DNA of 64,000 nucleotides from Arachis hypogaea (lineage: Eukaryota > Streptophyta > Magnoliopsida > Fabales > Fabaceae), in the NCBI RefSeq assembly GCF_003086295.3, contig NC_092039.1, positions 71,567,649-71,631,648 of the forward strand, read 5' to 3'. Positions 5,601 through 64,000 of the stretch are shown in pieces (the first letter of the stretch is position 1; every line of letters starts with the position of its first letter). The notes below the pieces were generated by a model. The model worked only from the letters and a program-made list of their open reading frames with translations, made no database searches and had not been told where the DNA came from. A program made the translations under genes and the position numbers.

Positions 5601-6070
5601 AGGGGAATTTTGTTCCCAAATCAATTTTTTTCAATTTTTCTTGTTTTAATTCTTAATTTTCTGCATAAAAACATTAAAAATCTTCATCTTTCAATCCCTA
5701 TTTAAAAAATTATTAGTCTTATAAATTCTTCTTAATTCCCTTTCAATTCTTTTTCAAAAATGTTTTTAAAACTCATTCATCTTTCCAATTTCTTTCCATA
5801 TCTTTTCAAATCACCCATTTTATCTTTTTTTAGATGCATTAACAAAAATTCAAATTTAATTTCCCCATATCTTTTCCATATCTTTCAAAATTTTAAAATC
5901 CTATCTTTTTCATATCATGTTTATCTTTTACCAATCATATCTTTCTATCATATCTTTTTCAAAAGAATTTTGAAAACCCACCCTCTCTCCCTTTTAAATC
6001 CCATTCGGCCATCCCCATTCAATCACCATTCGAATCCTTTTCTCCTTCTATCCCTCTTCTTTCCTTTCTT
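5601..6070 (+). other. AT-rich spacer before the third ORF (A1)
   Basis: T/C-rich sequence with no supportable coding potential, matching the equivalent stretch 22713-23062 in A2. The open frame across it is low-complexity and unlikely to be translated. Confidence 0.6.
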
Positions 6071-6104
6071 TTGCTTGAGGACAAGAAAACCTCTAAGTTT
6101 GGTG
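6071..6104 (+). other. Hairpin plus CTAAGTTTGGTGTG motif (A1, decayed)
   Basis: TTGCTTG-AGGA-CAAGAAA (6071-6088) is the A1 version of the conserved hairpin, with one arm base mutated, followed by CTAAGTTTGGTGTG. It lies about 40 bases before the third-ORF ATG. Confidence 0.6.
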
Positions 6105-9616: not shown

Positions 9617-9653
9617 AACCTCCCCACACTTAAACTAAGCATGCCCTCATGCT
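9617..9653 (-). other. N2 polypurine tract and conserved hairpin
   Basis: On the minus strand the order is AGCATG-AGGG-CATGCT (6-bp perfect stem, 9638-9653), then TTTAAGTGTGGGGAGG directly before the 3' LTR. The G-rich end is a good plus-strand primer (PPT). The hairpin is the N2 form of the TTGCTTG-loop-CAAGCAA hairpin of the A family, with different arms that still pair. Confidence 0.78.
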
Positions 9654-11264: not shown

Positions 11265-11282
11265 AGCATCGTCCTCGATGCT
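11265..11282 (-). other. Conserved hairpin overlapping the third-ORF stop (N2)
   Basis: Minus-strand AGCATCG-AGGA-CGATGCT, a perfect 7-bp stem with an AGGA loop, followed by CTAAAGTGTGGGGAGG. The 5' arm begins inside the TAG stop of the third ORF. It has the same stem length and loop as the A-family hairpin but entirely different arm bases. Confidence 0.75.
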
Positions 11283-15107: not shown

Positions 15108-16639
15108 TGATGAGCGGATAATTTGTATGCTTTTTGGCATTGTTTTTAGTATGTTTTTAGTATGATCTAGTTAGTTTCTAGTATATTTTTATTAGTTTTT
15201 AGTTAAAATTCACTTTTCTGGACTTTACTATGAGTTTGTGTGTTTTTCTGTGATTTCAGGTATTTTCTGGCTGAAATTGAGGGTCCTGAGCAAAAATCTG
15301 ATTCTGAGACCAAAAAGGACTGCAGATGCTGTTGGATTCTGACCTCCCTGCACTCGAAGTGGATTTTCTGGAGCTACAGAAGCCCAATTGGCGTGCTCTC
15401 AACGGCATTGGAAAGTAGACATCCTGGGCTTTCCAGAAATATATGATAGTCCATACTTTGCCCAAGATTTGATGGCCCAAACCGGCGTAGCAAATCAGCC
15501 TCAGAAATTCCAGCGTTAAACGCCGGAACTGGCATGAAACTTGGAGTTAAACGCCCAAACTGGCATGAGAACTGGCGTTTAACTCCAGAAAACGTCTCTA
15601 CACATAAAAGCTTCAATGCTCAGCCCAAGCACACACCAAGTGGACCCAGAAGTGGATTTTTACGTCATTTACTCATTTCTGTACACCCTAGGCTACTAGT
15701 TTACTATTAATAGGATCATTTGACATTGTATCTGTACCTGATGACTTCATGACACTTTTACACCTTTCTTTGTGTACTTTCCACGGCATGAGTCTCTAAA
15801 CCCCATGGTTGGGGGTGAGGAGCTCTGCTGTGTCTTGATGGATTAATGCAATTACTACTGTTTCTCATTCAATCATGCTTGCTTCCATTCTAAGATAATA
15901 CTTGTTCTTAATCCGGATGAATGTGATGATCTGTGACAATCATCATCATTCTCAACCATGAACGTGTGACTGACAACCACCTCCGTTCTACCTTAGATTA
16001 AGTAGTTATCTCTTGGATTCTTTAATCGGAATCTTCGTGGTATAAGCTAGGACTGATGGCGGCATTCAAGAGAATCCGGAAGGTCTAAACCTTGTCTGTG
16101 GTATTCTGAGTAGGATTCGATGATTGAATGACTGTGACGTGCTTCAATCTCCTGAAGGCGGCGCGTTAGTGACAGACGCAAAAGAATCACTGGATTCTAT
16201 TCCGGCCTGATTGAGAACCGACAGATGAATTCCGCTATGCTGTGACAGAGCATATGCAATCACTTTCACTGAGAGGATGGGAGGTAGCCATTGACAACGG
16301 TGAAACCCTACATACAGCTTGCCATGGAAGGAGACTTGCGTGTTTGAAGAAGAAGATAGTAGGAAAGCAGAGATTCAGAAGATGGAGAATCTCCAAACCT
16401 CAACCTATTCTCCATTACTGCAAAACAAGTAATCATTTCATGTTCTTTTGCTTTTCACAATCAATCCTGATAATTTCTGATATCCTGACTAAGATTTACA
16501 AGATAACCATAGCTTGCTTCAAGCCGACAATCTCTGTGGGATCGACCCTTGCTCACGCAAGGTATTACTTGGACGACCCAGTACACTTGCTGGTTAGTTG
16601 TGCGGGATTGCAAAAGTGTGATTGCAATTTCGTGCACCA
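15108..16639 (+). repeat. A2 5' LTR
   Basis: 1532 bases, TG...CA. U3 holds three palindromic words with 31-base spacing (starts 15512, 15543, 15574), then a weak TATA region (15704-15714). The same block is repeated at 25016-26546. Confidence 0.96.
15704..15714 (+). promoter_or_regulatory. Probable TATA region of the A2 5' LTR
   Basis: CTATTAATAGG aligns with the TATAAAA of the solo LTR at 1943 and with CTATAAGTAGG in the A5 LTR (about 42138). It lies about 115 bases after the last palindrome. Confidence 0.5.
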
Positions 16640-16645
16640 AGTTTT

Positions 16646-16663
16646 TGGCGCCGTTGCCGAGGA
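16646..16663 (+). other. A2 primer-binding site (tRNA-Asp)
   Basis: TGGCGCCGTTGCCGAGGA, seven bases after the LTR end. It pairs with the 3' end of plant tRNA-Asp (ending CCCCGGCAACGGCGCCA) with one mismatch (A for G). The other PBS copies in the window have GGGG or other single changes. Confidence 0.88.
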
Positions 16664-17208
16664 TTGTTGAGTTTGGACAACTGACGGCTTATCTTGTTGC
16701 TTAGATTAGGACTGTTTTATTTTTGTTGGTTTAGAGTCTTTTAGTTGAGTCTAGTTCCATATTCTAAGTTTGGTGTCAATTGCATGCTTTTGTTTTCCTT
16801 TTGATTTTCGATTTTTGCATGTTTTTAGTCCCTTTTTGATTTACAAAAATTCTAAGTTTGGTGTCCTCTTTGTGTTTTTCCCTTAAAAAATTTTCAAAAA
16901 CTGTGTGTTTGATTTTCTAAAATTTTAAGTTTGGTGTCTTTTTGTGTTTTTCTCTTTCCTCTTTTCAAAATCAAATCCTTTTCATAAAAATTTTTCAATC
17001 ATATCTTTTTAATTGCTGTTTTCAAAATCTTTTTGATTAACTAATTGATTCAGTTTTCAATTTACTTAGATCTTATTTTCTTTTTGATTTTCGAATTTTT
17101 ATTTTAATTTTCCTCTGTTTTATTTTAGTTTTTCGTTTATTCAAAAAAAAAAACAACAAAAACAAAATTTATCTCTTTGCAATCATCATCATTTCCCTTT
17201 TGTCCATC
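16664..17208 (+). other. A2 leader (5' untranslated)
   Basis: T-rich leader between PBS and gag ATG. It contains three copies of TAAGTTTGGTGTC (16765, 16853, 16926), the same word that precedes the 3' LTR, and an A-rich run before the start codon. No coding potential seen. Confidence 0.7.
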
Positions 17209-20200
17209 ATGGACTTAAGTGGGATTAATCAGTCCAAAAGGACTCTGGGGTCATATGCTAACCCCATTACAGCTGCATATGGGAGTAGCATCTGTACACC
17301 TCCCATCAAAGCAAGCAGCTTTGAACTAAATCCTCAACTCATTATCATAGTGCAGCAAAATTGCCAGTATTCCGGTCTTCCACAGGAAGAACCTACTGAG
17401 TTTCTGGCACAGTTTTTACAAATTGCTGACACAGTACATGATAAAGAGGTAGATCAGGATGTCTACAGACTATTGTTGTTTCCATTTGCTGTAAAAGATC
17501 AAGCTAAAAGATGGTTGAATAACCAACCTACAGCAAGCATAAAGACATGGAAACAGTTGTCAGACAAATTCCTGAGTCATTTTTACCCTCCAAAAAGGAT
17601 GACACAGTTAAGGCTGGACATCCAAGGCTTTAAACAAGAGGATAATGAATCCCTTTATAATGCCTGGGAGAGGTATAGAGGTATGCTAAGGAAATATCCC
17701 TCTGAAATGTTTTCAGAGTGGGTACAGTTAGACATTTTTTATTATGGGCTTACAGAAAAAGCTCAGATGTCTTTAGACCACTCAGCTGGTGGATCTATAC
17801 ACATGAGGAAGACAATTGAAGAAGCTCAAGAGCTTATAGACACTGTTGCTAGAAACCAATATTTGTATTCTAGCAATGAGTTCTCTCCAAAAGAGGAAGT
17901 CATGACAGTAGTCACTGACCCTAATCCTCAAGAACAGATAAATGAGCTTAATCAACAATTGCTCCTGATGACAGAACAGTTAGCAGACTTTAAAGAGATG
18001 CTCTATGAAACTAAAGTTGCTAACAAGAGCATAGAACTGCAGTTGAATCAAGCAAAACAGCAAATATCTAAACAGATAACAGAGGAATGTCAAGCAGTTC
18101 AATTGAGGAGTGGGAAGACCCTGAATAACACTGCTCAAAAGAGTAAAAAGCCAAACAAGGAACAATTGACAGAGGACGACCAAACCACTGTTCAAAATCC
18201 CTCTGAGGACAGTAAGAGCCCAGAGAGGAATGCTATTGGCGTTCAAACGCCAGAAAGGGAAGGAAAGCTGGCGTTAAACGCCCATTCCTTGCCCAGTTCT
18301 GGCGTTCAAACGCCAGAAAAGGGGGAAAAGTTGGCGTTTAACGCCCAAACTTCACCCATTCCTAGCGTTCAGACGCCTGGGGAGAATCAGACACCTGAGA
18401 GTGCTAACAGTAATCCCTCTAACAAGGCTTCTTCAACCACTTCTGTAAGGAATAAACCTGCAGCATCTAAGGTTGAAGAATATAAAGCCAAGATGCCTTA
18501 TCCTCAAAAACTCCGCCAAGCGGAACAGGATAAGCAATTTGCCCGCTTTGCAGACTATCTAAGGACTCTTGAAATAAAGATTCCGTTTGCAGAGGCACTT
18601 GAGCAAATACCTTCTTATGCTAAGTTCATGAAAGAAATCCTAAGTCATAAGAAGGATTGGAGAGAAACTGAAAAAGTGTTTCTCACTGAAGAATGCAGTG
18701 CAGTCATATTAAAAAGCTTACCAGAAAAGCTTCAAGATCCAGGGAGCTTTATGATACCATGCACATTAGAAGGTGCTTGCACCAAGACAGCTCTATGTGA
18801 TCTTGGAGCAAGCATCAATCTAATACCTGCATCCACTATCAGAAAGCTTGGGTTGACTGGAGAAGTCAAACCAACCCGGATATGCCTCCAACTTGCTGAT
18901 GGCTCCATTAAACACCCATCAGGCATAATTGAGGACATGATTGTCAAGGTTGGGCCATTTGCCTTTCCCACTGACTTTGTGGTGCTGGAAATGGAGGAGC
19001 ACAAGAGTGCAACTCTCATTCTAGGAAGACCCTTCCTAGCAACTGGACGAACTCTCATTGATGTGCAAAAAGGGGAAGTCACCTTGAGAGTCAATGAGGA
19101 TGAGTTCAAGTTGAATGCTGTAAAAGCTATGCAGCATCCAGACATACCAAATGACTGCATGGGCGCTGACATTATTGACTCTCTGGTAGAAGAGATCAAT
19201 ATGGCTGAAAGCCTAGAATCAGAGCTTGAGGACATCTTCAAGGATGCTCAAACTGATCAAGAAGAACTAGAGGAGGTAAAGGAATTGTCGAAAATTCCTC
19301 AGGAGGAGGATAAGCCTCCCAAGCCTGAACTCAAACCACTACCACCATCCCTGAAATATGCATTTCTGGGAGAGGGTGACACTTTTCCAGTGATTATAAG
19401 CTCTGCTTTAAACTCACAGGAAGAGGAAGCACTGATTCAAGTGCTAAGGACACACAAGACAGCTCTTGGGTGGTCCATAAGTGATCTTAAGGGCATTAGC
19501 CCAGCTAGATGCATGCACAAGATCCTACTGGAGGATAATGCCAAACCAGTGGTCCAACCACAGAGGAGGCTAAATCCTGCCATGAAGGAGGTGGTGCAGA
19601 AAGAGGTCACTAAGTTACTAGAGGCTGGGATTATTTATCCTATTTCTGATAGCCCCTGGGTGAGCCCTGTCCAAGTTGTTCCCAAAAAGGGAGGCATGAC
19701 AGTGGTTCATAATGAAAAAAATGAACTGGTTCCTACAAGGACAATCACAGGGTGGCGCATGTGTATTGACTACAGAAGGCTCAATACAGCCACCAGAAAG
19801 GATCATTTTCCTTTACCATTCATAGACCAAATGCTAGAAAGACTAGCTGGCCATGATTATTACTGCTTTTTGGATGGCTATTCAGGCTACAACCAAATTG
19901 CAGTAGATCCTCAGGACCAAGAGAAAACAGCATTCACTTGCCCTTCTGGCGTGTTTGCCTATAGGAGGATGCCTTTTGGTCTGTGCAACGCACCTGCAAC
20001 CTTTCAGAGGTGCATGCTCTCTATCTTCTCAGATATGGTAGAGAAATTTCTGGAAGTCTTCATGGATGACTTTTCAGTATATGGAGACTCATTTAGCTCC
20101 TGTCTTAATCACCTAGCACTTGTCCTGAAAAGGTGCCAAGAGACTAACCTGGTTTTAAACTGGGAGAAATGTCACTTTATGGTGACTGAAGGAATTGTCC

Positions 20201-22215
20201 TTGGGCACAAAATTTCAAGCAGGGGAATAGAGGTGGATAAGGCAAAGGTAGAGGTAATTGAAAAATTACCACCACCTGCCAATGTTAAGGCAATCAGAAG
20301 CTTTCTGGGGCATGCAGGATTCTACAGAAGGTTTATAAAGGATTTTTCGAAAATTGCAAAACCTCTGAGTAACCTGTTAGCTGCCGACACACCATTTGTG
20401 TTTGATACACAGTGTCTGCAGGCATTTGAGACCCTGAAAGCTAAGCTGGTCACAGCACCAGTCATCTCTGCACCAGATTGGACATTGCCATTTGAACTAA
20501 TGTGTGATGCCAGTGACCATGCCATTGGTGCAGTGTTGGGACAGAGGCATAACAAGCTTTTGCACGTCATTTACTATGCCAGCCGTGTTCTAAATGACGC
20601 ACAGAAGAACTACACAACCACAGAAAAAGAGTTACTTGCAGTGGTCTATGCCATTGACAAGTTTAGATCCTATCTAGTGGGATCCAAAGTGGTTGTGTAC
20701 ACTGACCATGCTGCTCTTAAATATCTACTCACAAAGCAGGATTCAAAACCCAGGCTCATTAGATGGGTGTTGCTTCTGCAAGAGTTTGATATAGAAATAA
20801 GAGACAGAAAAGGGACAGAGAACCAAGTAGCAGATCATCTGTCCCGAATAGAACCAGTAGCTGGGGCGTCCCTCCCTTCTACTGAGATCTCAAAGACTTT
20901 CCCAGATGAGCAACTATTTGCCATTCAGGAAGCTCCATGGTTTGCAGATATTGCAAATTTTAAAGCTGTGAGGTTCATACCCAAAGAGTACAGTTACATG
21001 CAGAGAAAGAAATTAATTTCAGATGCCAAGTACTACCTCTGGGATGAACCATATCTCTTCAAGAGATGTGCTGACGGAGTGATCCGCAGGTGTGTACCCA
21101 GAGAAGAAGCACAAAGGATCCTATGGCACTGCCATGGATCACAGTATGGAGGACATTTTGGAAGTGAGCGAACAGCCACTAAAGTCCTCCAATGTGGCTT
21201 CTACTGGCCTACTCTCTATGAAGATTCCCGAGAGTTTGTGCGTAACTGTGACAGTTGCCAAAGAGCTGGTAACCTGCCTCATGGATATGCCATGCCTCAA
21301 CAAGGGATATTAGAGATAGAACTGTTTGATGTATGGGGAATTGACTTCATGGGGCCATTCCCACCATCATACTCAAACACTTACATTCTGGTGGCAGTAG
21401 ACTATGTGTCTAAGTGGGTAGAAGCGATTGCTACACCCACCAATGATACTAAGACCGTACTGAAATTCCTCCAGAAAAACATTTTCAGCAGATTTGGCGT
21501 TCCCAGAGTGCTAATCAGTGATGGGGGCACTCATTTCTGCAATAAACAGCTACACCTTGCTATGGTTAGATATGGAATTAGCCACAAAGTGGCAACTCCG
21601 TATCATCCACAGACAAATGGGCAAGCTGAGGTCTCTAACAGAGAGCTAAAGAGAATCCTGGAACGGACTGTGATGGCCCGAAGAAAGGATTGGGCAAAGA
21701 GCTTGGATGATGCTCTGTGGGCATACAGAGCAGCATTCAAGACTCCTATAGGAACCTCTCCATACCAACTGGTGTATGGGAAGGCCTGTCATTTGCCTGT
21801 GGAACTGGAACATAAAGCCTACTTGGCAACCAGATTCCTAAACATGGATGCACAGTTAGCTGGTGAAAAAAGACTGCTCCAGCTAAATGAGCTAGAGGAG
21901 TTCAGACTCAATGCCTTTGAAAATGCAAAAATTTATAAGGAAAAGGCAAAGAAATGGCATGACAAGAAGTTGTCAACCAGAGTCTTTGAGCCAGGACAAA
22001 AAGTTCTGCTCTTCAACTCTAGGCTCAGACTGTTTCCAAGAAAACTCAAATCCCGTTGGAGGGGTCCGTATGTGATTACAGGAGTGTCACCATATGGATA
22101 TGTTGAGCTTCAGGATATTGATTCTGACAAGAAGTTCATTGTTAATGGACAGAGAATCAAGCACTATCTTGAAGGAAATTTTGAGCAGGAATGCTCAAAA
22201 CTGAGACTTGAGTGA
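17209..22215 (+). CDS. A2 gag-pol polyprotein, 1668 residues
   Basis: One unbroken frame; the first ATG in context is 17209 (M-D-L-S-G). Gag (about 40-190) has the Retrotrans_gag pattern ([15 protein letters not shown]); no CCHC zinc knuckle is present. A linker (about 344-390) carries a 21-residue G-V-Q-T-P-E repeat encoded by palindromic DNA. Protease: D531 in C-D-L-G-A-S. RT: F-M-D-D with D953/D954. RNase H: D1100 in M-C-D-A-S, then T-E-K-E-L and Y-T-D-H. Integrase: H-H-C-C region ending C-D-S-C-Q (near 1345), catalytic D1379, D1438, E1474 (35 residues between the last two), then R-W-R-G-P-Y. No chromodomain. All catalytic residues are present, so it could be active. Gag and Pol are fused with no frameshift or stop between them. 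Confidence 0.95.
18238..18378 (+). repeat. Palindrome array inside the gag-protease linker
   Basis: GGCGTTCAAACGCC, GGCGTTAAACGCC, GGCGTTCAAACGCC, GGCGTTTAACGCC and AGCGTTCAGACGCCT start at 18238, 18270, 18301, 18333 and 18364 (steps 32, 31, 32, 31). Two steps equal 63 bases, so the frame is kept and the protein shows a 21-residue repeat. The words are those of the non-coding array at 22384-22712. Confidence 0.9.
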
Positions 22216-22242
22216 TTCTCAGTGAAGGTCCAGCTAAAGACA

Positions 22243-22274
22243 GTAAAGAAGCGCTTGCTGGGAGGCAACCCAGT
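22243..22274 (+). other. Post-pol conserved hairpin (A2)
   Basis: AAGAAGCGCTTG then CTGGG-AGGCAA-CCCAG (22258-22273), a perfect 5-bp stem, about 30 bases after the gag-pol stop. Other families have GTTGGG-AGGCAA-CCCAAC, so the closing pairs change together. Confidence 0.75.
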
Positions 22275-22383
22275 CATTAGTAGGTTGTATGATTAGTTCT
22301 TACAGAGGCAAATATCAAAAATGAAGGAATTCACAGAGTTACAGAAGGATTCAGCTCAAAAAGCAAAGAAAATGAGCTTACTG

Positions 22384-22712
22384 GCGAAAAAATGCCAGTA
22401 AGGGGCATTTTGGGCGTTAAACGCCAGAATGGGTACCATTCTGGGCGTTTAACGCCAGGAATGGGTACCATTCTGGGTGTTTAACGCCAGGAATGGTGCC
22501 ATTTTGGGCGTTAAACGCCAGAATGGGCACCATTCTGGGCGTTTAACGCCAGGTGTGCAGCATCCTGGGCGTTTTGAAAAACGCCCAGTGATAAAGGCTG
22601 TCTGGCATTTAACGCCAGCCAGGGCACCTGGCTGGGCGTTAAACGCCCAAAAGGGGTGCCAATTGGGCGTTAAACGCCAGAATGAGTGCCATTCTGGGCG
22701 TTTAACGCCAGA
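22384..22712 (+). repeat. Non-coding 31/32-bp-period palindrome array (A2)
   Basis: GGCGTTAAACGCC-type palindromes start at 22413, 22444, 22476, 22507 and 22538 (steps 31, 32, 31, 31), then less regularly to about 22710. Linkers AGAATGGGTACCATTCT are palindromic as well. The mean step is close to three turns of B-DNA (31.5 bp). Confidence 0.92.
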
Positions 22713-23062
22713 AAGGTGGGGGGACCACATTTTTGTTTTCAACTCAAATTTTTTCAAACTTTCCTCTTTTTACCCATACTCTTCTACATAAATGCACTTC
22801 AACCTTTCATCATTCACTTTCAAATCTTCACAAATCAAAACCATTCTTCAAATCTATTTCAAATTAATCCCAAATCTTCTTCAAAAACTCACCCTTTTTT
22901 CAATTTCTTTCCATATCTTCTCAAATCTCCTTTCAAATCTCTTTTTTTTTTTCGAAAAAACTCTCCCCCTCACCTTATAAATTCGTGTTTGGCTTCCTCT
23001 TTCCACCACACCATTCGAATTTCCTCTTCCTCTCTCTCTCTCTTCTCTTCTTTCTTCTCTTT
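22713..23062 (+). other. Pyrimidine-rich spacer (A2)
   Basis: T/C-rich tract leading to the third-ORF hairpin. The open frames here are low-complexity products of the tract, and I see no gene. Confidence 0.6.
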
Positions 23063-23099
23063 TTGCTTGAGGACAAGCAAAACCTCTAAGTTTGGTGTG
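23063..23099 (+). other. Conserved hairpin plus TAAGTTTGGTGTG before the third ORF (A2)
   Basis: TTGCTTG-AGGA-CAAGCAA (23063-23080), a perfect 7-bp stem, then TAAGTTTGGTGTG (23087-23099). The ATG follows at 23137. The same pair of elements precedes the 3' LTR at 24979-25015. Confidence 0.85.
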
Positions 23100-23136
23100 C
23101 TTTTCCGTGATCACTAAGCCAAGATTCATCAAGATC

Positions 23137-23990
23137 ATGGCTCCTAAGGGAAAACAAACCAACTCAAGAGGAAAGAAAGAGACTAATCCAAAGAATCTTT
23201 GGAATCAAGAGAAGTTCTTAACCAAAGAACATGAAGACCATTATCACAAAATAATGGGTCTGAGGTCAGTGATCCCAGAAGTTAAATTTGATCTGAAAGA
23301 AGATGAATATCCGGAGATCCAAGAGCAAATTCGAAACAGAGGATGGGAAGTTCTGACCAATCCTGAAATAAAGGTGGAAGGAACATGGTTCAGGAATTCT
23401 ACTCTAATCTGTGGCTAACAGATAAGCAGAGAATGACTGGAACTGCTTACCATACCTACAGAACCATGGTCAGAGGGAAAGTTATGTACTTCCATCTGGA
23501 CAAAATAAGAGAAATCTTCAAACTACCTCAACTGCAAGATGATCCTGACTCCTTCAATAGGAGGATGGTGAGAGTAGATAAAGGGTTGGATCAAGTTCTA
23601 GAGGACATATGCCTCCCTGGGACTAAGTGGATAACCAATTCAAAGGGTGTCCCAAACCAACTCAAGAGGGGAGACCTCAAGCCAATTGCAAGAGGGTGGC
23701 TAGACTTTATTGGGCATTCTATATTGCCCACTAGCAACCGTTCTGAGGTCACCATCAAGAGAGCAGTGATGATTCATTGCATTATGCTTGGAAAAGAAGT
23801 GGAAGTCCATCATGTGATTGCTTGTGAGATCTACACAATTGCAAATAAGAATTCCACTGTAACCAAATTGGCTTATCCAAGCCTGATCTCCTTGCTCTGT
23901 AAAGTGGCTGGAGTGAAGATGGAAGCAGATGAATTCATACCTATTGAACATCCAATCACCAAGAAGTCAATGGAAGGACAAGGGGCGTGA
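23137..23990 (+). pseudogene. A2 third ORF, broken by a single-base deletion
   Basis: It starts M-A-P-K-G-K-Q-T-N. The first frame runs to a stop at 23416-23418; the homologous protein continues in another frame from about 23385 (F-Y-S-N-L-W-L-T) to 23990. Next to A1 (about 6376-6391), A2 lacks one base near 23370-23380, so the change is a 1-bp deletion. Total length 854 bases, i.e. 285 codons less one base. Conserved parts: L-P-Q-L-Q-D-D-P, G-T-K-W-I-T-N, P-T-S-N-R-S-E-V-T-I, C-I-M-L-G-K-E-V. It is the Athila third-ORF family, function unknown. This is the only lesion I see in an otherwise intact element. Confidence 0.82.
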
Positions 23991-24978
23991 ACTCCAAGAA
24001 TTGAAACGCCAAAAGTTCTCCTCTCAAGCTGAGGGAGCATCCACTTCTCAAAATCAAGGTTGTTGAGTCCTAACTCTGTGAAAACCCCTATCATTAGGAG
24101 CCTATGTTTGCGTTTTTTTTTCCTTTGTTTTGTTTTTATTTTTCGTTTTTTTTAGTTTCATTTTATATCTATTTTTGAGTCTTGCTTTAATTCATAATTA
24201 ATAAAATTGAAATTTTATGACTTAAAGATATGAATGTCCTATAAATCCATCACCTCTCTTAAATGAAAAATGCTTTAATCACAAAAGAATAAGAAGTACA
24301 GGATTTCAAAATTCATCCTTGAAACTAGTTGAATTAGTTTGATGTGGTGACAATACTTTTTGTTTTCTGAATGAATGCTTGAATAGTGCATATGTCTCTT
24401 GAATTTGTTGTTTTGAGAATGTTAAAATTGTTGGCTCTTGAAAGAATGAGGAAAAAGAGAACTGTTATTGAGGATCTAAAATCATTAAACTGATTCTTGA
24501 AGCAAGAAAAAGCAGTGGATACAAAAAAAAATTCGAAAAAAAAAGAAAAGAGAAAAAGAAAAGAAATAAAGTTGTAATCCAAGGCAACAAGAGTGTGCTT
24601 AAGAACCCTGAACACCTCTAATTGGGGACTTTAGCAAAGCTGAGTCACAATCTGAAAAGGTTCACCCAATTATGTGTCTGTGGCATGTATGTATCCGGTG
24701 GTAATACTGGAAGACAGAGTGCTTTGGGCCACAGCCAAGACTCATACACTAGCTATGTTCAAGAATCATTATGCTCAACTAAGAGAATCAATAACACTAT
24801 CTGAGTTCTGAGTTCTTATAGATGCCAATCATTCTGAACTTCAAGGGATAGAGTGAGATGCCAAAACTGTTCGGAGGCAAAAAGCTACTAGTCCCGCTCA
24901 TCTAATTGGAACTATGTTTCCTTGATATTTTGGAGTCTATAGTATATTCTCTTCTTTTTATCCTATTTTGATTTTCAG
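23991..24978 (+). other. A2 3' untranslated region
   Basis: AT-rich, no gene. At about 24655-24725 it has a stretch (TCCGGT-GGTAAT-ACTGGA hairpin) homologous to segments in A4 (minus, 38570-38620) and in B1/B3, suggesting a conserved 3' RNA structure. T- and A-rich runs lie at 24110-24150 and 24520-24570. Confidence 0.65.
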
Positions 24979-25015
24979 TTGCTTGGGGACAAGCAACAAT
25001 TTAAGTTTGGTGTTG
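24979..25015 (+). other. Conserved hairpin and pre-LTR motif (PPT region) of A2
   Basis: TTGCTTG-GGGA-CAAGCAA (24979-24996), a 7-bp stem with a GNRA-type loop, then TTTAAGTTTGGTGTTG ending at the first base before the 3' LTR. It sits where the polypurine tract must be, although it is only partly purine. N2 has TTTAAGTGTGGGGAGG at the same place. Confidence 0.8.
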
Positions 25016-26546
25016 TGATGAGCGGATAATTTGTATGCTTTTTGGCATTGTTTTTAGTATGTTTTTAGTATGATCTAGTTAGTTTCTAGTATATTTTTAT
25101 TAGTTTTTAGTTAAAATTCACTTTTCTGGACTTTACTATGAGTTTGTGTGTTTTTCTGTGATTTCAGGTATTTTCTGGCTGAAATTGAGGGTCCTGAGCA
25201 AAAATCTGATTCTGAGACCAAAAAGGACTGCAGATGCTGTTGGATTCTGACCTCCCTGCACTCGAAGTGGATTTTCTGGAGCTACAGAAGCCCAATTGGC
25301 GCGCTCTCAACGGCATTGGAAAGTAGACATCCTGGGCTTTCCAGCAATATATGATAGTCCATACTTTGCCCAAGATTTGATGGCCCAAACCGGCGTGGCA
25401 AATCAGCCTCAGAAATTCCAGCGTTAAACGCCGGAACTGGCATGAAACTTGGAGTTAAACGCCCAAACTGGCATGAGAACTGGCGTTTAACTCCAGAAAA
25501 CGTCTCTACACATAAAAGCTTCAATGCTCAGCCCAAGCACACACCAAGTGGACCCAGAAGTGGATTTTTACGTCATTTACTCATTTCTGTACACCCTAGG
25601 CTACTAGTTTACTATTAATAGGATCATTTGACATTGTATCTGTACCTGATGACTTCATGACACTTTTACACCTTTCTTTGTGTACTTTCCACGGCATGAG
25701 TCTCTAAACCCCATGGTTGGGGGTGAGGAGCTCTGCTGTGTCTTGATGGATTAATGCAATTACTACTGTTTCTCATTCAATCATGCTTGCTTCCATTCTA
25801 AGATAATACTTGTTCTTAATCCGGATGAATGTGATGATCTGTGACAATCATCATCATTCTCAACCATGAACGTGTGACTGACAACCACCTCCGTTCTACC
25901 TTAGATTAAGTAGTTATCTCTTGGATTCTTTAATCGGAATCTTCGTGGTATAAGCTAGGACTGATGGCGGCATTCAAGAGAATCTGGAAGGTCTAAACCT
26001 TGTCTGTGGTATTCTGAGTAGGATTCGATGATTGAATGACTGTGACGTGCTTCAATCTCCTGAAGGCAGGGCGTTAGTGACAGACGCAAAAGAATCACTG
26101 GATTCTATTCCGGCCTGATTGAGAACCGACAGATGAATTCCGCTATGCTGTGACAGAGCATATGCAATCGCTTTCACTGAGAGGATGGAGGTAGCCATTG
26201 ACAACGGTGAAACCCTACATACAGCTTGCCATGGAAGGAGACTTGCGTGTTTGAAGAAGAAGATAGTAGGAAAGCAGAGATTCAGAAGATGGAGCATCTC
26301 CAAACCTCAACCTATTCTCCATTACTGCAAAACAAGTAATCATTTCATGTTCTTTTGCTTTTCACAATCAATCCTGATAATTTCTGATATCCTGACTAAG
26401 ATTTACAAGATAACCATAGCTTGCTTTAAGCCGACAATCTCTGTGGGATCGACCCTTGCTCACGCAAGGTATTACTTGGACGACCCAATACACTTGCTGG
26501 TTAGTTGTGCGGGATTGCAAAAGTGTGATTGCAATTTTGTGCACCA
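25016..26546 (+). repeat. A2 3' LTR
   Basis: 1531 bases, about a dozen differences from the 5' LTR (for example at 25301, 25345, 25398, 25985, 26068-26070 and one single-base indel). Followed by target duplicate CTTGT. Confidence 0.96.
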
Positions 26547-28485: not shown

Positions 28486-29995
28486 TGATGATTGTGCTTT
28501 GCTCGATGGTCTAGATTTCCTTCTTATAGAAATAAGAACTACTTCGTTGTAAACATAGCTCCAAACCATCAAACAATTCTCACATCAAAAATTTGAGTTG
28601 TCACGAGTAACAAACCCCAAATGAAAATTAACCGGAGTATTTAGACTCCGGGTCATCTCCCTAGGAATCACAATGAAATGCTTGGTTATTGGCTATAAGG
28701 TGTGTTTTTGGGGGTTTTTGGAATGATAGACATGAAAGTAATTAATAACAGAGATCAAGTGACAAAGGGGTCTTGGCAAGGGTTGGTGGTCAAAGATCTC
28801 TATCATAATTACTAACCACAGCATGAGAATTGGCAAGGATCAACCTCATTAAGTCATCCTCTAACTCATAAAGGAAAGTCAAATGAGCTATATCAATCCA
28901 AGACCATAAGTCCTAATTCCTTACTAATTCAATTAGTTAGAATTAGAGTTAACGACTCCCAATCATCAATCACTTGGACATTAGCAACTCAAGAGTTCCT
29001 AAGTTACCTTCCCAAGCCAAGAACATAAAATTCTACTCGAACATCCTTCCAAGCATGTTGTCAAACACTTGGAAGGCATAAAAGGAAGGTACAACAAATA
29101 ACAAAAATTGATGAAATCTAATGAATAACAATTGTAGAGAAAATGAGATCACAACTCAATTCGGCAACAAAAGAACATCACACATTAAATTGTAATTAAG
29201 AAAAGATCCAAACACAACAAGAATTTATCATCACAAAAGATAACAAAAAGAAAAGTTACCATGAGAAATAAGAATAATCAAGGCTAGAAACAAGAATTTG
29301 TAGATAAAAACAAGGGAATAACATGAAATCGGAACTAGATTAAAGTGAAATTAACCTAATCTATCCTAATTCTAGAGAGAAGATGGAGCTTCTCTCCCTA
29401 GAAACTATACTACATGATGCTAATACTAACTAATGTTCTTCCTCTCTTTGCTTGGGCTTCAATTCTGCATGAAATACACTCAGAAACAAGCTGGAATTGG
29501 GCCTGGGTGGCCCAGAAATCACCCCCAGCGATTTGCCTTTAAGTGAGTCACGTGTGAGCATCGGCGCGTACGCGCGCTTTGCGCTTGCGCGTCGATTGGA
29601 AAATCCTTCATCTGCGCGGGCACGTCATGTTCGCGTGTGCGTGTCTACATAAACCTCTTCTGCGCGTGCGCGCCTTGTGCGCGTGCGCGCCCCTTTGATG
29701 TAATTCCAATCTTTGTTTCTTCATGGATTCTCTTCCTTGTATGCTTTTCTCCTCATTTCTTCCATCCAATACTTGCTTTATGATCTTGAAATCACTCAAC
29801 AAACACATCAAGGCATCGAATGGAGTTAAAGTGAACTAAAATCACTAGTTTAAGGCTTAAAAAGCATGTTTTTACATTTAAGCACAATTCAAAGGAGAAT
29901 TACAAAACCATGCTATTTCATTGAATAAATGTGGATAAAGGCGATAAAATCCCCCAAAATAAGCACAAGATAAATCACGAAATCGGGGTTTATCA
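28486..29995 (-). repeat. N2 5' LTR
   Basis: 1510 bases; plus-strand ends TGATGATTG...TTTATCA. GC-palindromic words (GCGCGTACGCGCGC and similar) at 29565-29700. Followed by CGAAT. Confidence 0.93.
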
Positions 29996-30000
29996 CGAAT

Positions 30001-30411
30001 TCACTTAAAAATCAGGTATCAGCATCGACGCGTACGCGCACAGCACGCGTACGCGTCCATGGGCCATTTCGCAAGGTGCGCGTAAGCGCCTGGTGCGCGC
30101 GCGCGTCCATGGGCGAGTTCAATTCTTTGGCCTTTTCATGATCTTCTCCACTTTGTATGCTTTCCTCTCACTCCTTTGATCCATTCCTAGCCTTTTCAAT
30201 CTGAAATCACTAACAAACAAATCAAGGCATCTAGTGGAATCAAAGGTGAATTAAAACTATCAAGTTAAAGGCCTAAAAAGCATGTTTTCACATTTAAGCA
30301 CAAATTGGGAGACAATCACAAAATCATGCTAATTCATTGAATAGATGTGGGTAAAAGGTGTTAAAATCTCCTAAAATCAATACAAGATAAACCCTAAAAA
30401 TGGGGTTTATC
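30001..30411 (-). mobile_element. N1 3' LTR, second part
   Basis: It resumes the N1 LTR after the N2 insertion and ends GGGGTTTATCA at 30411. It contains ACGCGTACGCG-type palindromes (30025-30110). Confidence 0.82.
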
Positions 30412-31912
30412 AACCTTCCCACACTTAAACCAAGCATGTCCTCATTCTTAAACCAAGAATGAAGTAAGGTTATGGCATTTATTCAATGGAAACTAACTAA
30501 ATGCAATCTACCTATATGCAACTATCTAAATGAATGCAATTGCTTGGTCAAAATAAATCAATTCCCAAGAAGCATATATGCACAAAGGCTAGGGACTATC
30601 AAATCTAATCCACAATTGGATTGAGTTATTAAATATTTTTACAAACTTGCATGAAAAGTGATACTTATAGGTGGAAACATGTAATTGAGCATCAAACCCT
30701 CACCGGATGTGTTTGCACTCTATTCGCTCAAGTGTTTAGGGTCGATTCACTCAATTCTCCTCTATTTCATGCTTTCTAAGATTTGTTTTTCTTCTAACAA
30801 TCAACATACATTTCATGCATGCATACACATATCATGAGGTCTTTTTATTGGTTGTAATGGGGCTAGGGTTAAGGTAGGATGCATATTTGGTCAAGTGAGC
30901 TTGAAATTTGAATCTTTGATAAGCTTAAACTTCCCACCTAACCTATGACATCCTATACAATTAAGTTCTAACCTGACTACCCATTCTTCTCACTTTTTCA
31001 CATACTCATGTACCCCTTTTCATTTCACAACACATATACATTGATTTTATTGAGCTTCACTTTGCTTTGGGGCATTTTGTCCCCTTTTATTGCTTTCTTT
31101 TTCTTTGTTTTTCTTTGTTTTTCTATTTTTTTCTTTTCTTTCTCTTTTGTTTTTCTCATTTTTTTTCTTTCTATATACAAGAGCATCAATACATAAGGTT
31201 TTACATTTGATCAATACACGAACATGCACCTAATTCCCAAATATTTACAACAAAAAACAAAACTACCCTTTTATTCACCCAATGTCCCAAGATTTCCCAC
31301 ACTTGAATGTTACACACACACTAGCCTAAGGTAATCAAAGATCCAAATAAGGACATTTATTGTTTTCCGCTTCAAGGCTTGTAATGTGCTAAAATAAGAA
31401 CAAGTAGGTTAAGCGTAGGCTCAAATTGGCTAACAATGGATGCTAAGGGGTAAAGCTATTTGGGTAAGTGAGCTAATTGAAATGATGGCCTCAATCATAT
31501 AAATGCATGTATACACAAAATAATGGACATAAAGAATCAAACAAATCGAAGATTACAATCATAGGAAGTGAATAATTGCACACAAGAAGGAAAAATAAGT
31601 GGTTATAGGATGTAACCACACCATTAGGCTCAAATCTCACTTGCTTGTGTTCTTAGCTCAAAACATGATCTACAATATATATAATTCAAGCAAGTTCTAT
31701 GAAAAGTTTTCACTCAAATCAATTGGTGCTCTATAGATAAATTTCTAGAAAAATTTCATTATTTTAACTAAGCTTATTATGTATACATATGCAAAAATGA
31801 GAAAATGCAAGTAAAAATCCTAAAACCTAAAATGAAATGCAAAAGTGTTGGAATTAGAAATTTGTCACCCAAAATCACCGATTGGTCGGATGACCTCCCC
31901 ACACTTAAAGTT

Positions 31913-31930
31913 TACACCGTCCTCGGTGCA
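31913..31930 (-). other. Conserved hairpin (N1 internal)
   Basis: Minus-strand TGCACCG-AGGA-CGGTGTA: six of seven pairs, AGGA loop, then TTTAAGTGTGGGGAGG. Arms differ from N2 and A but keep pairing. Confidence 0.68.
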
Positions 31931-38265: not shown

Positions 38266-38302
38266 CAACACCAAACTTAAATTGTTGCTTGTCCCCAAGT
38301 AA
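38266..38302 (-). other. Hairpin and pre-LTR motif (A4)
   Basis: Minus-strand TTACTTG-GGGA-CAAGCAA (one mismatched pair), then TTTAAGTTTGGTGTTG directly before the LTR. Confidence 0.75.
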
Positions 38303-39554
38303 CTGAAAATCAATTAGGATAAAAAGAAGAGAATATACTATAAACTCCAAAATATCAATGAATATTAATTATAATTAGATGAGCGGGACTTGTAGCTTTT
38401 TGCTTCTGAACAGTTTTGGCATCTCACTTTTTCCTTTGAAGTTTAGAATGATTGGCTTCTCTAGGAACTTAGAATTTCGGATAGTGTTATTGACTTTCCT
38501 AGTTAGGCATGTTGATTCTTGAACACAGCTACTTATGAGTCTTGGCCGTGGCCCTAAGCATTTTGTTTTCCAGTATTACCACCAGATAGATAAATGCCAC
38601 AGACACATGACTGGGTGAACCTTTTCAGATTGTGACTCAGCTTTGCTAGAGTCCCCAGTTAGAGGTGTCCAGAGCTCTTAAGCACACTCTTTTTGCTTTG
38701 GATCACGACTTTAACCACTCAGTCTCAAGCTTTTCACTTGGACCTTCATGACACAAGCACATGGTTAGGGACAGCTTGATTTAGCCGCTTAGGCCTGGAT
38801 TTTATTTCCTTGGGCCCTCCTATCCATTGATGCTCAAAGCCTTGGATCCTTTTTACCCTTGCCTTTTAGTTTTAAGGGCTATTGGCTTTTTCTGCTTGCT
38901 TTTTCTTTTTCTTTCTATTTTTTTCGCCAGTTTTTTTTTCGCAAGCTTTTTTGTTTTCACTGCTTTTTCTTGCTTTAAGAATCAATTTCATGATTTTTCA
39001 GATCATCAATAACATTTCTCTTTGTTCATCGTTCTTTCAAGAGCCAACAGTTTTAACATTCATAAACAACAAGATCAAAAATATGCACTATTCAAGCATT
39101 CATTCAGAAAACAAAAAGTATTGTCACTACATCAATATAATTAAATTAAATTCAATGATAAATTCGAAATTCATGTACTTCTTATTCTTTTGAATTAAAA
39201 CATTTTTCATTTAAGAGAGGTGAAGGATTAATGGATTTTATTCATAGCTTTAAGACATAGTTACTACATACTAATGATCATGAAGTAGAGACACAAAACA
39301 TAGATAAACACAACATTAAAAACCAAAAAATAGAAAGAAATAAAGAACAAGGAATGAATCCACCTTTAGTGGCGTCTTCTTCTTGAAGGACCAACAATAT
39401 CCTTAAGCTCTTCTATGTCCCTTCCTTGCCTTTGTTGCTCCTCCCTCATTGCTCTTTGATCTTCTCTTATTTCTTGAAGAATGATGGAGTGCTCATGATG
39501 TTCCACCCTTAATTGTTCCACATTGTGGCTCAAATCTTCTAAGGAGGTGTTGAG
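38303..39554 (-). other. A4 3' untranslated region
   Basis: Homologous to the A2 stretch 23991-24978. No gene. The segment about 38570-38620 carries the GGTAAT-loop hairpin (minus TCTGGT-GGTAAT-ACTGGA) with a perfect outer pair GCATTT/AAATGC. Confidence 0.65.
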
Positions 39555-40513: not shown

Positions 40514-40548
40514 AGATGGTAGTGGAAAACAAAAAAGATTGTGCTTTG

Positions 40549-40588
40549 ACCACACACCAAACTTAAAATATTGCTCGTCCTCGAGCAA
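40549..40588 (-). other. Conserved hairpin before the third ORF (A4)
   Basis: Minus-strand TTGCTCG-AGGA-CGAGCAA (40571-40588), a perfect 7-bp stem, then TTTTAAGTTTGGTGTG, about 35 bases before the ATG. Compared with A2 one pair has changed on both sides (T-A to C-G). Confidence 0.82.
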
Positions 40589-41097
40589 TAGAAGAAATAA
40601 GAGAAGAAGAAGAAGAAGAGAATATGGTAGAGAAGGAGAGATGTAGGTTCGGCCTAAGTAAAGAAGAAGGGGTTTGTGGTGTGAAAATGAAGTAGAATGG
40701 AAGGGTATATATAGGGAGAGGGGGTAGTGTTTGTTCGGCCATTTAGGGTGGGAATGGGTGGGAAAATGGTTTTGAATTTTGGAAGGTAGGTGGGGTTTAT
40801 GGGGAAGAGTGGATGGATTTGAGTGGTGAAAGGGGTGATTGGGAAGAGGAATTGAGGTGATTGGTGAAGAGTGTTGGGAAGTGTGACATGGGGAATACAA
40901 ATCACAAAAATAGGATTTAGGAGGTAAGGTGGGAATATAGTAGGTGGGGATCCTGTGGGGTCCACAGATCCTAAGGTGATCCTGTGGGGTCCACAGATCC
41001 TGAGGTGTCAAGGAATTCCATCCCTGCACCAAATAGGCATGTAAAATGCCTTTGCACACCATTTTAGCATTTAAACGCTCATTGGTGCACGTTCTGG
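40589..41097 (-). other. A4 spacer before the third ORF, no gene
   Basis: Between the palindrome array and the hairpin, in minus sense. It is pyrimidine-rich on the minus strand, with a direct repeat of GATCCTGTGGGGTCCACAGA (40949 and 40978 areas). The long minus frames here are low-complexity. Confidence 0.55.
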
Positions 41098-43144: not shown

Positions 43145-43181
43145 CTTGCTTGGGGACAAGCAAGATTTAAGTTTGGTGTTG
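43145..43181 (+). other. Hairpin and pre-LTR motif (B1)
   Basis: CTTGCTTG-GGGA-CAAGCAAG, a perfect 8-bp stem (43145-43164), then TTTAAGTTTGGTGTTG directly before the LTR. Identical arrangement to A2, although B encodes no polymerase. Confidence 0.85.
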
Positions 43182-52573: not shown

Positions 52574-52610
52574 CTTGCTTGGGGACAAGCAAGATTTAAG
52601 TTTGGTGTTG
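52574..52610 (+). other. Hairpin and pre-LTR motif (C)
   Basis: CTTGCTTG-GGGA-CAAGCAAG (52574-52593), then TTTAAGTTTGGTGTTG directly before the C 3' LTR. Identical to B1. Confidence 0.85.
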
Positions 52611-62397: not shown

Positions 62398-64000
62398 GTA
62401 GGTATAATTTCTCTTCTCTGCTTTGTTTTCTTTCTTTAAATTCAATAAATTGGCATATGGTTACATTTTAAGTTTGGTGTTGCCATGCAACACATTGTTT
62501 TCAATCTTTTTGGATGATTGCATCAAATCAAAAAATTGAAAGTGACACACCAAGATTCTAAGTTTGGTGTGCCACGTATTTTTCTATGCAAATCATTCAG
62601 CAACACCACTTGTCTGCATAACCATAATGTCTTTGCAGTGTTAATTTTCTTTTGGTTTGATATTTTGTTATTCTGTTTACTTTAGTTAATTCTTTGTTTT
62701 TAATGCTTTCATTTTAGTTTGCTTATTTACTGTGTTTGTTAATACATTACCAAGAGAGCTTTATTAATGACAGATTCTTAGCTTGGTGATTGTAATTAAT
62801 AAATAACAGTTTCATTTGCTTGGTTTTAATTCAAATAAGTGGACATAGGATTGCATTCTAAGTTTGGTGTTGCTATGCAACACAATTTGCTTCAAATCTT
62901 TACTGGATACTTGCATTGATTCCAAGTGAAAGTATCACACTAAGTTTGGTGTGCCACTTATCTTTTATGCAATGTATTGTGCTCACCTTCTTAAGTTTGC
63001 AATCAAATGTCTCTGTCTCTTGTGCTTTGATTATTATCTTTAATTTTGCTTGCTCAAAACACATGTACTACTAATTTTTCATTGTGTAAGACATTCATGA
63101 TCCATCTTAGCCCCATAGCCATTGTTCTAATTGTTGCTTGAGGATGAGCAAGCATTCTGAGTTTGGCAAGGGAAAGAGGAAGAATAGAGGAAAAAGGACA
63201 ACAATAATAAAGATGAACTACAAGGTTATAGAGTTCCTTTTCTTTTCATTTGTTTCCAGCACTTAAATTGCATGATTGTCTTCATCTTTTCTATTTACAT
63301 GTGTGTATGAATAAAGCATAACTTGAATCTTGATTTGTAATATGTTGTTGTGGCATTATAACTACCAACTTGAATTTTGTGAGTTCAAAAGTAGTAAAGT
63401 ATCATGATCATAAACAAACAAGGCATTAAAAAAGAACTTAGCATGTGCATACAAGTATTGGAAAGCTAGTATGATTGATTGTTGCTCAATTGCATTGGAT
63501 TTTATTTAATTGAAGTTATTCATCTAGTACATTTTGTGAAATCTTTTGAAATCATGAAAACCTTGAAAAAGCAAATACAATTAAAGCAAGAAAAGAAAAA
63601 GGGAAAGAATGAGAAAGCTGAAGGCCCTGAGTACCAATGGCAATTTATTTGCTAAGTGCTTGTGGTGTTTATGTATCAAGCCAAATGCTTGAAAACAAAA
63701 CACTTAGAAGTCAAGGCTAGGCTCAAGTGCAAAAGCACTCCCTCAAAGCTCAAGGCTCTGAGCATCAATGATTAGAGAGTCAAGAAAAGAAAAGAAAAAT
63801 GAGCTTAATGAAGTCCTCTAATTAAATGCTTGTGGTGCTTATGTATCAAGTGGTAATACTTGAAAACAAAGCATTTAGAAGTCGTAGCTTTGTTATCAAC
63901 TCATGGGACAAAGCACCCAAAAGGAGAAGCTAATAAAAAAAATAAATAAATAAATCAAAAGCTTGTTTCAAGGAAGAATTACAAGGAAAAGATTTCATAA
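62398..64000 (+). other. B3 3' untranslated region
   Basis: No gene. YTAAGTTTGGTGTK words near 62468, 62558, 62860 and 62941. TTGCTTG-AGGA-TGAGCAA hairpin (63134-63151, two wobble pairs) followed by CTGAGTTTGGC. Two nested stem-loops at 63652-63707 and 63822-63878. Confidence 0.68.

What the first reader, a model, noticed from the sequence alone, without database searches (positions are those of the whole stretch)
23063..25015. Covarying AGGA/GGGA hairpin linked to a TTTAAGTTTGGTG motif across retrotransposon families
At twelve sites I find a short hairpin followed within about 2-13 bases by TAAGTTTGGTGT (A, B, C) or TAAGTGTGGGG (N). Sites: 6071, 23063, 24979, 43145, 52574 and 63134 on plus; 9638, 11265, 30432, 31913, 38285 and 40571 on minus. 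Arms differ but still pair: TTGCTTG/CAAGCAA, TTGCTCG/CGAGCAA, AGCATCG/CGATGCT, AGCATG/CATGCT, TGCACCG/CGGTGTA; B1 and C have CTTGCTTG/CAAGCAAG. Stem length (6-8) and a purine loop are kept. Compensatory change points to selection on RNA or cruciform structure. It sits directly before 3' LTRs and next to the third ORF, and occurs in elements with and without pol. Possible roles: plus-strand priming, 3' end formation, packaging, or translation of the third ORF. I do not know of a description of it.
Basis: partly seen in the sequence, partly recalled or inferred. Interest (0 to 1): 0.86.

Follow-up and report, generated by a model that had tools for sequence, protein, structure and literature searches.

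The report
Hairpin beside retrotransposon plus-strand primer site
Thousands of plant retrotransposon copies carry a tiny hairpin, with arms that change together so that they keep pairing, at a nearly fixed distance before the site thought to start second-strand DNA synthesis; this suggests an overlooked part of their copying machinery.

Summary
In detail: all 12 hairpins are at the stated places. The window lies in a 2.56-Gb genome (unnamed; size fits peanut) with tens of thousands of copies. Among 92 distinct hairpins the arms covary strongly (88.4% of cells paired; 54.8% after shuffling, 20-37% after sliding), and 28 groups defined by flanking sequence agree. Loop (RGGA, then C) and spacing are kept while stems change: GGAC lies 16-17 nt before the AAGTKTGG core in 104 of 113 sites and 28-30 nt before the LTR in 27 of 28. 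Elements carry a copy beside the 3' LTR and often a second 1.5-2.3 kb upstream. I read the core as the plus-strand primer (PPT), and the upstream copy as the extra PPT reported for Athila4/Calypso. Contaminant contigs show the module, with other stems, in another Athila-like element and a chromovirus; a chromovirus-type pattern is enriched in the home genome (615 against 23). Most likely the hairpin belongs to the primer signal, perhaps by halting reverse transcriptase so that RNase H cuts at PPT/U3; that mechanism is inferred. The motif also occurs without hairpin (62 of 83). The open papers searched hold no description.

The parts
24978..24997 (+). LTR-adjacent hairpin of element A (GTTGCTTG-GGGA-CAAGCAAC)
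   Evidence: 18 nt from stem base to the 3' LTR
25001..25015 (+). PPT-position segment between hairpin and 3' LTR (TTAAGTTTGGTGTTG); read as plus-strand primer, not tested
25016..26546 (+). 3' LTR of element A (TGATGAGCGG...CACCA), followed by the target-site duplication CTTGT
   Evidence: LTR pair 99.15% identical
15108..16639 (+). 5' LTR of element A, preceded by the duplication CTTGT (15103-15107)
16646..16658 (+). primer binding site resembling the tRNA-Asp complement (TGGCGCCGTTGCC)
   Evidence: PBS string recalled
17041..22215 (+). gag-pol reading frame (stop to stop): gag, protease, RT, RNase H, integrase
22976..22981 (+). TATA-like box upstream of the linker hairpin
   Evidence: string match only
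23061..23082 (+). linker hairpin of element A (TTTTGCTTG-AGGA-CAAGCAAAA)
23087..23098 (+). core motif TAAGTTTGGTGT after the linker hairpin (extra-PPT position)
23137..23987 (+). third ORF: ATG at 23137 (93-residue frame in this copy); PF20167 segment in another frame at 23367-23987
6069..6089 (+). linker hairpin of a related element (one mismatch in the 3' arm); loop-closing G lies 67 nt before an ATG with MAPK start (frame broken after 6 residues)
40569..40590 (-). linker hairpin, second stem type (TATTGCTCG-AGGA-CGAGCAATA); loop-closing G lies 69 nt before an ATG with MAPK start
38284..38303 (-). LTR-adjacent hairpin of the same minus-strand element (one mismatch)
43145..43164 (+). LTR-adjacent hairpin CTTGCTTG-GGGA-CAAGCAAG, LTR TGATGACATG follows
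52574..52593 (+). LTR-adjacent hairpin of element C (gag-like match only, no pol found)
11265..11282 (-). upstream hairpin of an N element (AGCATCG-AGGA-CGATGCT)
9638..9653 (-). LTR-adjacent hairpin of the same N element (AGCATG-AGGG-CATGCT)
31913..31930 (-). upstream hairpin of a second N element (TGCACCG-AGGA-CGGTGTA)
30432..30449 (-). LTR-adjacent hairpin of the second N element (one mismatch), before LTR TGATAAACCC
63134..63151 (+). weak, divergent instance (TTGCTTG-AGGA-TGAGCAA, then TGAGTTTGGC)

Best explanation
The hairpin is a structural part of the plus-strand priming signal of these Ty3/gypsy elements. SHOWN: the stem is kept by compensatory change while its sequence turns over; the loop RGGA before C is kept; GGAC-to-core and GGAC-to-LTR distances are nearly fixed; the LTR-adjacent copy is present in a pol-bearing family and in two families in which no pol was detected. 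INFERRED: the AAGTTTGGTGT / AAGTGTGGGGAGGT / AAGGGGG segment between hairpin and LTR is the PPT. INFERRED AND MORE SPECULATIVE: when reverse transcriptase copying minus-strand DNA has passed the PPT it meets the hairpin base and pauses; its RNase H then sits some 17-19 nt behind, over the PPT/U3 border, and cuts there, which fixes the 3' end of the primer and so the LTR end that integrase needs. The upstream copy would make a second plus-strand start, like the extra PPT reported for Athila4 and Calypso.
For: Covariation: 92 distinct sites, 88.4% of cells paired against 54.8 +/- 1.5% shuffled (0 of 500) and 20.0-37.0% slid; covariation score 0.759 against 0.195 +/- 0.018 (0 of 500); 220 cells changed on both sides against 86.1 +/- 7.2. 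One hairpin per flank-defined cluster: 149 of 168 cells paired in 28 clusters, at most 123 in 20,000 arm swaps. Spacing: GGAC to core 16-17 nt in 104 of 113; GGAC to LTR 28-30 nt in 27 of 28; stem base to LTR mode 18 nt, range 16-23, n=24. Reach: another Athila-like element, stem ACATTG/CAATGT, GGAC to AAGT 16 nt; a chromovirus (SH3_Tf2-1 and a chromo match below its cut-off), stem GATTTCG/CGAAATC, 18 nt to LTR. Of one search's 9 pattern hits, the 4 that I judged to be retroelement 3' ends have a hairpin and the other 5 do not. Around 33 purine tracts of contaminant contigs, stems of at least 7 bp occur at 5, against 141 of 6000 random stretches. Home genome: 615 chromovirus-type matches against 23 reversed; 80 of the 100 listed at the same 16-nt spacing.
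Against: No element was shown to transpose and no PPT was mapped. In the window's main family the PPT-position segment (AAGTTTGGTGTTG) is not purine-rich. Ty3 RT has its two active sites about 13 bp apart (PMC5371799, passages), less than the 17-19 nt the ruler model needs; the distance for Athila RT is unknown. 62 of 83 core motifs lack the hairpin. The upstream copy is not next to an LTR, so a measuring role cannot be its whole story. Two's five measures do not separate well from shuffles: pairs with two-sided change 6 against 6.0, further pair types 22 against 19.0 (16 of 500). A loop-blind hairpin-plus-purine scan of contaminant elements was only weakly above its control: 11 raw hits (6 places, in 5 of 20 regions) in about 46 kb against 11 raw hits on the opposite strands, 110 kb. 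The other 15 regions showed none by that rule; some are short, without a recognised 3' end, or from the same contig as another region. The ACATTG hairpin in L229 is not the minimum-energy fold of its 40-nt stretch.
Confidence: 0.6

Rival explanations
1. The hairpin and the UUUGGUGU motif are binding sites for Gag (nucleocapsid) that serve packaging or dimerisation of the RNA; their place at the 3' end and in the linker is one of several sites.
For: The motif is repeated without hairpin, with different flanks: three copies ahead of the gag frame in element A, and copies 33 bp apart in several sampled loci. A purine tetraloop plus GGUG recalls retroviral packaging hairpins (recalled). Elements without detected pol keep the LTR-adjacent copy and would need packaging in trans.
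Against: Spacing to the LTR is nearly fixed, which packaging does not need. A chromovirus has the hairpin with a different motif.
Confidence: 0.15
2. The hairpin acts in translation, splicing or transcription of the third ORF: it lies in that ORF's leader, downstream of a TATA-like box and a pyrimidine tract.
For: In the linkers of three elements the loop-closing G lies 67-69 nt before an ATG with MAPK start; two of the three have a TATA match upstream. The 31 nt 5' of the stem are 74-75% pyrimidine against 50% background.
Against: The LTR-adjacent copy has no ORF after it. In the N element with a PF20167 ORF the upstream hairpin follows the ORF. In the C element no third ORF was detected, yet it keeps the LTR-adjacent hairpin. 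In these three copies the frame from the ATG is short (93, 6 and 46 residues).
Confidence: 0.1
3. Complementarity is kept by mutation, not selection: template switching inside imperfect palindromes copies one arm onto the other.
For: Would produce two-sided changes in one step; the arms are close together. No call tested this directly.
Against: Does not explain the kept loop, the nearly fixed distances to core and LTR, or the same module in distant elements.
Confidence: 0.07
4. The pairing matters in DNA (cruciform or single-stranded minus strand) rather than in RNA, for example as a stop for plus-strand displacement synthesis or an integrase or host-factor site.
For: Pair statistics do not separate RNA from DNA. 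The minus strand would form the same hairpin with a TCCY loop.
Against: No direct evidence either way; strand-specific G.U against A.C mispairs were not counted genome-wide (that search did not complete).
Confidence: 0.08

Closest known systems
Polypurine tract (PPT) of LTR retrotransposons and retroviruses, with the T-rich U-box upstream
   Same: position directly before the 3' LTR; purine-rich in N elements (AAGTGTGGGGAGGT) and in the chromovirus (AAGGGGGAGG); T-rich stretch just before it
   Different: a covarying hairpin upstream at nearly fixed distance; in the main family the segment is AAGTTTGGTGTTG, not a purine run
Extra PPT in the pol/env-like linker of Athila4 and Calypso (Wright and Voytas 2002, seen only as cited in PMC2829016)
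   Same: a second PPT-like motif between pol and the third ORF
   Different: here each of the two sites has its own hairpin; I could not read the original paper, so whether it shows one is unknown
Multiple PPTs of Sireviruses (PMC2829016, passages and section 17)
   Same: several identical short motifs besides the LTR-adjacent one
   Different: Ty1/copia, octamer AGGGGGAG; 'hairpin' and 'stem-loop' do not occur in the main text held
PPT-in-loop hairpins of Sire elements and HIV, discussed in PMC3601003 (passages)
   Same: RNA structure at the PPT; the authors call for a systematic search
   Different: there the PPT is in the loop and one arm is in U3; here the hairpin is wholly upstream
Central PPT of lentiviruses (recalled)
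   Same: second internal plus-strand start
   Different: lies inside pol; no such hairpin that I know of

Membership tests
PPT (plus-strand primer) | lies immediately 5' of the 3' LTR | tested here: met
   LTR border set by LTR pair and target-site duplication in element A; 27 of 28 sites with recognised LTR starts at 28-30 nt from GGAC
PPT (plus-strand primer) | purine-rich, RNase H-resistant RNA | tested here: inconclusive
   purine-rich in N and chromovirus types, not in the TGATGAGCGG family; resistance not testable
PPT (plus-strand primer) | primes plus-strand DNA synthesis | not testable with these tools
   needs cDNA end mapping
Extra PPT of Athila4/Calypso | second copy of the LTR-adjacent motif between pol and the third ORF | tested here: met
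   23087-23098 between the pol stop at 22215 and the ATG at 23137
PPT-in-loop hairpin (Sire/HIV type) | PPT inside the loop, one arm in U3 | tested here: not met
   stem and loop lie upstream; the core is outside the stem
Known Rfam RNA family | match at gathering score | tested here: not met
   0 matches in the window
Athila-type Ty3/gypsy element (element A) | tRNA-Asp PBS, gag-pol in one frame, extra ORF after pol | tested here: met
   defining list and lineage name recalled, no RT tree built

The most novel reading that the evidence does not exclude
An RGGA-loop hairpin about 17-19 nt upstream of U3 is an ancient, general component of Ty3/gypsy plus-strand priming, shared by Athila-type elements and chromoviruses, and it works as a roadblock that makes reverse transcriptase measure the PPT/U3 cut.
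Probability: 0.25. Interest if true: 0.85.

Novelty: new variant of a known kind. Interest (0 to 1): 0.66.

Why it matters
How reverse transcriptase picks the one correct plus-strand primer is a long-standing question, studied mostly in HIV and yeast elements. A covarying hairpin at a nearly fixed distance from the LTR in very abundant plant elements gives a concrete, testable signal. It would also help annotate LTR borders and extra PPTs where the PPT is not a purine run, and tell which non-autonomous families share a copying machinery.

Tried and rejected
The pattern scan of genome contigs found nothing; an RT query there found 15 loci, the useful source. Sequence-string searches of papers were uninformative (listings only).

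A first chromovirus pattern (GGACN{6,18}AAGGGGGGGAG) failed in the home genome, 18 against 7 reversed; a pattern built on a recalled 12-nt motif, stem included, gave 615 against 23. The matched letters could not be read, so these places are not verified as chromovirus ends.

An apparent second module in L274 (minus strand, about 387) lies inside an open pol frame and was discarded. A first clustering of sites chained 110 of 113 together and was replaced. One search's loop-blind scan was only weakly above its control; in 528 kb of home-genome strands the same rule gave 22 raw hits, and none of the 14 printed is the module. The planned count of C.A mispairs (GCTCGRGGACAAGC) did not complete.

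Rejected: protein-coding constraint as the cause of pairing (in element A one frame stays open through the linker hairpin up to the core, the other two have stops; coding does not predict arm complementarity); a known Rfam RNA.

Full report
WHAT WAS CHECKED. The 12 sites exist as described; details and the three mismatched stems are in the observation check. The window is G000:C4:71567649-71631648 of a 2.56-Gb genome in 440 contigs.

ANATOMY. Element A (15108-26546, plus) is the clearest. Its LTRs are 99.15% identical, flanked by CTTGT on both sides, with a tRNA-Asp-like PBS at 16646. Gag-pol lies at 17041-22215 with gag, protease, RT, RNase H and integrase matches. After pol come a 31-bp tandem array, a TATA-like box (22976), a pyrimidine tract, the linker hairpin (23061-23082), the core TAAGTTTGGTGT, an ATG at 23137 opening the third ORF (broken in this copy; PF20167 segment 23367-23987), a long untranslated stretch, the second hairpin (24978-24997), the same core, and the 3' LTR at 25016. 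A minus-strand relative has the same order at 40590-38284. The C element (PBS at 46964, LTR-adjacent hairpin at 52574) has a gag-like match but no pol match. The two N elements (minus strand) gave no gag or pol match in that search; one carries a PF20167 ORF upstream. Both have two hairpins about 1.5-1.6 kb apart, the second before the LTR, and a hairpin-less copy of the core between them. So the LTR-adjacent copy is the constant part. The linker copy varies: before the third ORF in A, after it in the N element where the ORF was found, not seen in C.

COVARIATION. I took 113 sites by a rule that ignores the stem (GGAC, 8-18 free bases, AAGTKTGG) from the window, 8 loci of the first search, 20 sample loci and 80 short fetched sites. 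Of the 80, 60 were chosen from the lists for diversity of the 3' arm and 20 from the TAAGTTTGGTGT lists; the 5' arm was not in those lists, except that one pattern fixes the loop and the closing G. The 8 loci of the first search did come from a pattern that includes the stem, and 79 of the 80 sites lie on one contig. There are 92 distinct 22-mers. Pairs 2 to 7 are formed in 81, 81, 87, 81, 86 and 76 of 92, against 43, 55, 48, 46, 47 and 62% expected from column composition. The formal count is 88.4% of 644 cells paired against 54.8 +/- 1.5% in shuffles and 20.0-37.0% when slid; score 0.759 against 0.195 +/- 0.018; the number of pairs with two-sided change (6) does not differ from shuffles and the number of pair types only slightly (22 against 19.0). 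Shuffles ignore relatedness, so I grouped sites by 24 nt beyond the core and kept one hairpin per group: 28 groups, 149 of 168 cells paired, mean 86.6 and maximum 123 in 20,000 swaps of whole arms; with a stricter threshold 40 groups, 214 of 240, maximum 168. Stems include TTGCTTG/CAAGCAA, TTGCTCG/CGAGCAA, AGCATCG/CGATGCT, TGCACCG/CGGTGTA, AGCACGG/CCGTGCT, TGCACGG/CCGTGCA and TAGCATG/CATGCTA. Per pair, 5 to 16 of 92 sites are unpaired, as expected for decaying copies. RNA folding gives the hairpin as part of the minimum-energy fold in 8 of 9 stretches, z from -1.42 to -3.07; the ninth (L229) prefers another fold.

SPACING. GGAC to the core: 16 or 17 nt in 104 of 113, 15 in 6, 18-19 in 3. GGAC to the first LTR base: 28-30 nt in 27 of 28, one at 34. 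Stem base to LTR: 16-23 nt, mode 18 in 13 of 24. In the sample, 83 TAAGTKTGG cores fall in two sets: 21 with an RGG(A/G/C) hairpin at 15-17 nt and 62 without; the 16 other stems of at least 6 of 7 pairs found near cores have scattered loops and spacing, as at random positions (1017 of 4000 by the same loose rule).

BEYOND THE HOME GENOME. An RT query of GTDB assemblies returned 15 loci that look like eukaryotic contamination. Two near-identical contigs (L229, L230; RT about 70% identical to element A over 215 residues) carry ACATTG-AGGA-CAATGT followed by TTGATTTAAGTTGGGGGGAGG, GGAC to AAGT 16 nt; no LTR border is known there. A second contig of L229's assembly (L264/L271) ends a pol frame with an SH3_Tf2-1 domain (E 2.6e-24) and a chromo match below its curated cut-off (20.1 of 25.1 bits). 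Its stop codon overlaps the stem GATTTCG-GGGA-CGAAATC, and 18 nt follow to TGTAAGACCC. A pattern search of nine such assemblies gave 9 places. Four I judged to be retroelement 3' ends: L278 by its pol stop, L285 by likeness to L278, L279 and L282 because they lie downstream of an RT on the same contig and strand. They have stems of 7, 7, 5 plus a G.U, and 7-8 bp; the other 5 places have none. L235 has a stem CGCTTCG with loop AGA 17 nt before a probable LTR start; a 392-bp LTR is supported by its CTCACA end followed by TGG. Near 33 purine tracts of these contigs, stems of at least 6 and 7 bp occur at 9 and 5, against 442 and 141 of 6000 random stretches. Against this, a loop-blind scan was only weakly above its control (11 raw hits, 6 places, in about 46 kb; 11 raw hits in 110 kb of opposite strands), and 15 of 20 regions showed nothing by that rule; some regions are short, come from the same contig as another, or lack a recognised 3' end. 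In the home genome the chromovirus-type pattern TTCGRGGACGAAN{3,14}AAGG has 615 matches against 23 reversed, with 80 of 100 listed at one spacing, GGAC to AAGG 16 nt, although 12 spacings were allowed. Here the stem was part of the pattern, so this is evidence for presence and spacing, not for covariation.

HOW IT MOST LIKELY WORKS. Shown: a conserved structure at a nearly fixed distance from the LTR, kept in several families. Inferred: the segment between is the plus-strand primer, and the upstream copy is the extra PPT that PMC2829016 attributes to Athila4 and Calypso (passages and section 17 read; the original, Wright and Voytas 2002, is not held). Speculative: RT stalls at the stem and RNase H cuts 17-19 nt behind. 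HIV RT has roughly this distance between its two sites (recalled), but the review of Ty3 gives about 13 bp (PMC5371799, passages), so the ruler is plausible only if Athila RT is HIV-like or the stall lies short of the stem. An alternative within the same view is that the stem keeps the region upstream of the primer from mis-pairing.

LITERATURE. Text searches (open-licence papers only; listings seen, passages of the papers named here) gave no description of this hairpin; 0 papers held 'Athila', 'polypurine tract' and 'hairpin' together. PMC3601003 (passages) discusses PPT-in-loop hairpins in Sire and HIV and calls for a systematic search. PMC1142308 (passages) notes a strongly predicted transmembrane segment when the 128 bp before the Diaspora PPT are translated; a pyrimidine tract like the one seen here would translate that way (inference). 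In PMC2410132 and PMC11963269 the word 'hairpin' does not occur in the main text held. Subscription papers were not searched, so novelty is provisional.

VERDICT. Real, strongly covarying, probably part of plus-strand priming; how it works is unproven. Novelty: new variant of a known kind.

Noticed in passing
16765, 16853, 16926, 34897, 35225, 35292, 35382, 51155, 51394, 62469, 62559, 62859, 62941 (+): Further copies of TAAGTTTGGTGT without the RGGA hairpin; in element A three lie between the PBS and the gag frame. Some (51155, 51394) could pair with a nearby CACCAAA, judged by eye only.
   Followed up: partly
L129:4078-4160, L131:4827-4910 and similar in L134, L141, L146, L147: The core motif recurs 33 bp apart upstream of the linker hairpin, where in L129 it reads by eye as the peptide repeat PNSKFGV, so the same 12-mer may be both coding and non-coding.
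   Followed up: no
22976-23137; 40522-40700 (minus): Third ORF has a promoter-like leader of its own: TATA-like box, pyrimidine-rich stretch, ATG with MAPK start.
   Followed up: partly
5284-5621 and 22406-22713: 31-bp tandem arrays built on the palindrome GGGCGTTAAACGCC after pol in two related elements.
   Followed up: no
about 28507-30412 (minus): An N-type LTR with a hairpin/PPT on one side and a tRNA-Asp-like PBS on the other (28482), as if two elements share one LTR.
   Followed up: no
10507 and 31304 (minus): Third, hairpin-less copy of the core (CAAGTTTGGG / CAAGTGTGGG) midway between the two hairpins of N elements.
   Followed up: no
L229 (NZ_QPKJ02000021.1), L230 (NZ_JABGCL010000066.1): Near-identical plant-like retrotransposon contigs inside two bacterial genome assemblies, apparently contamination.
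   Followed up: partly
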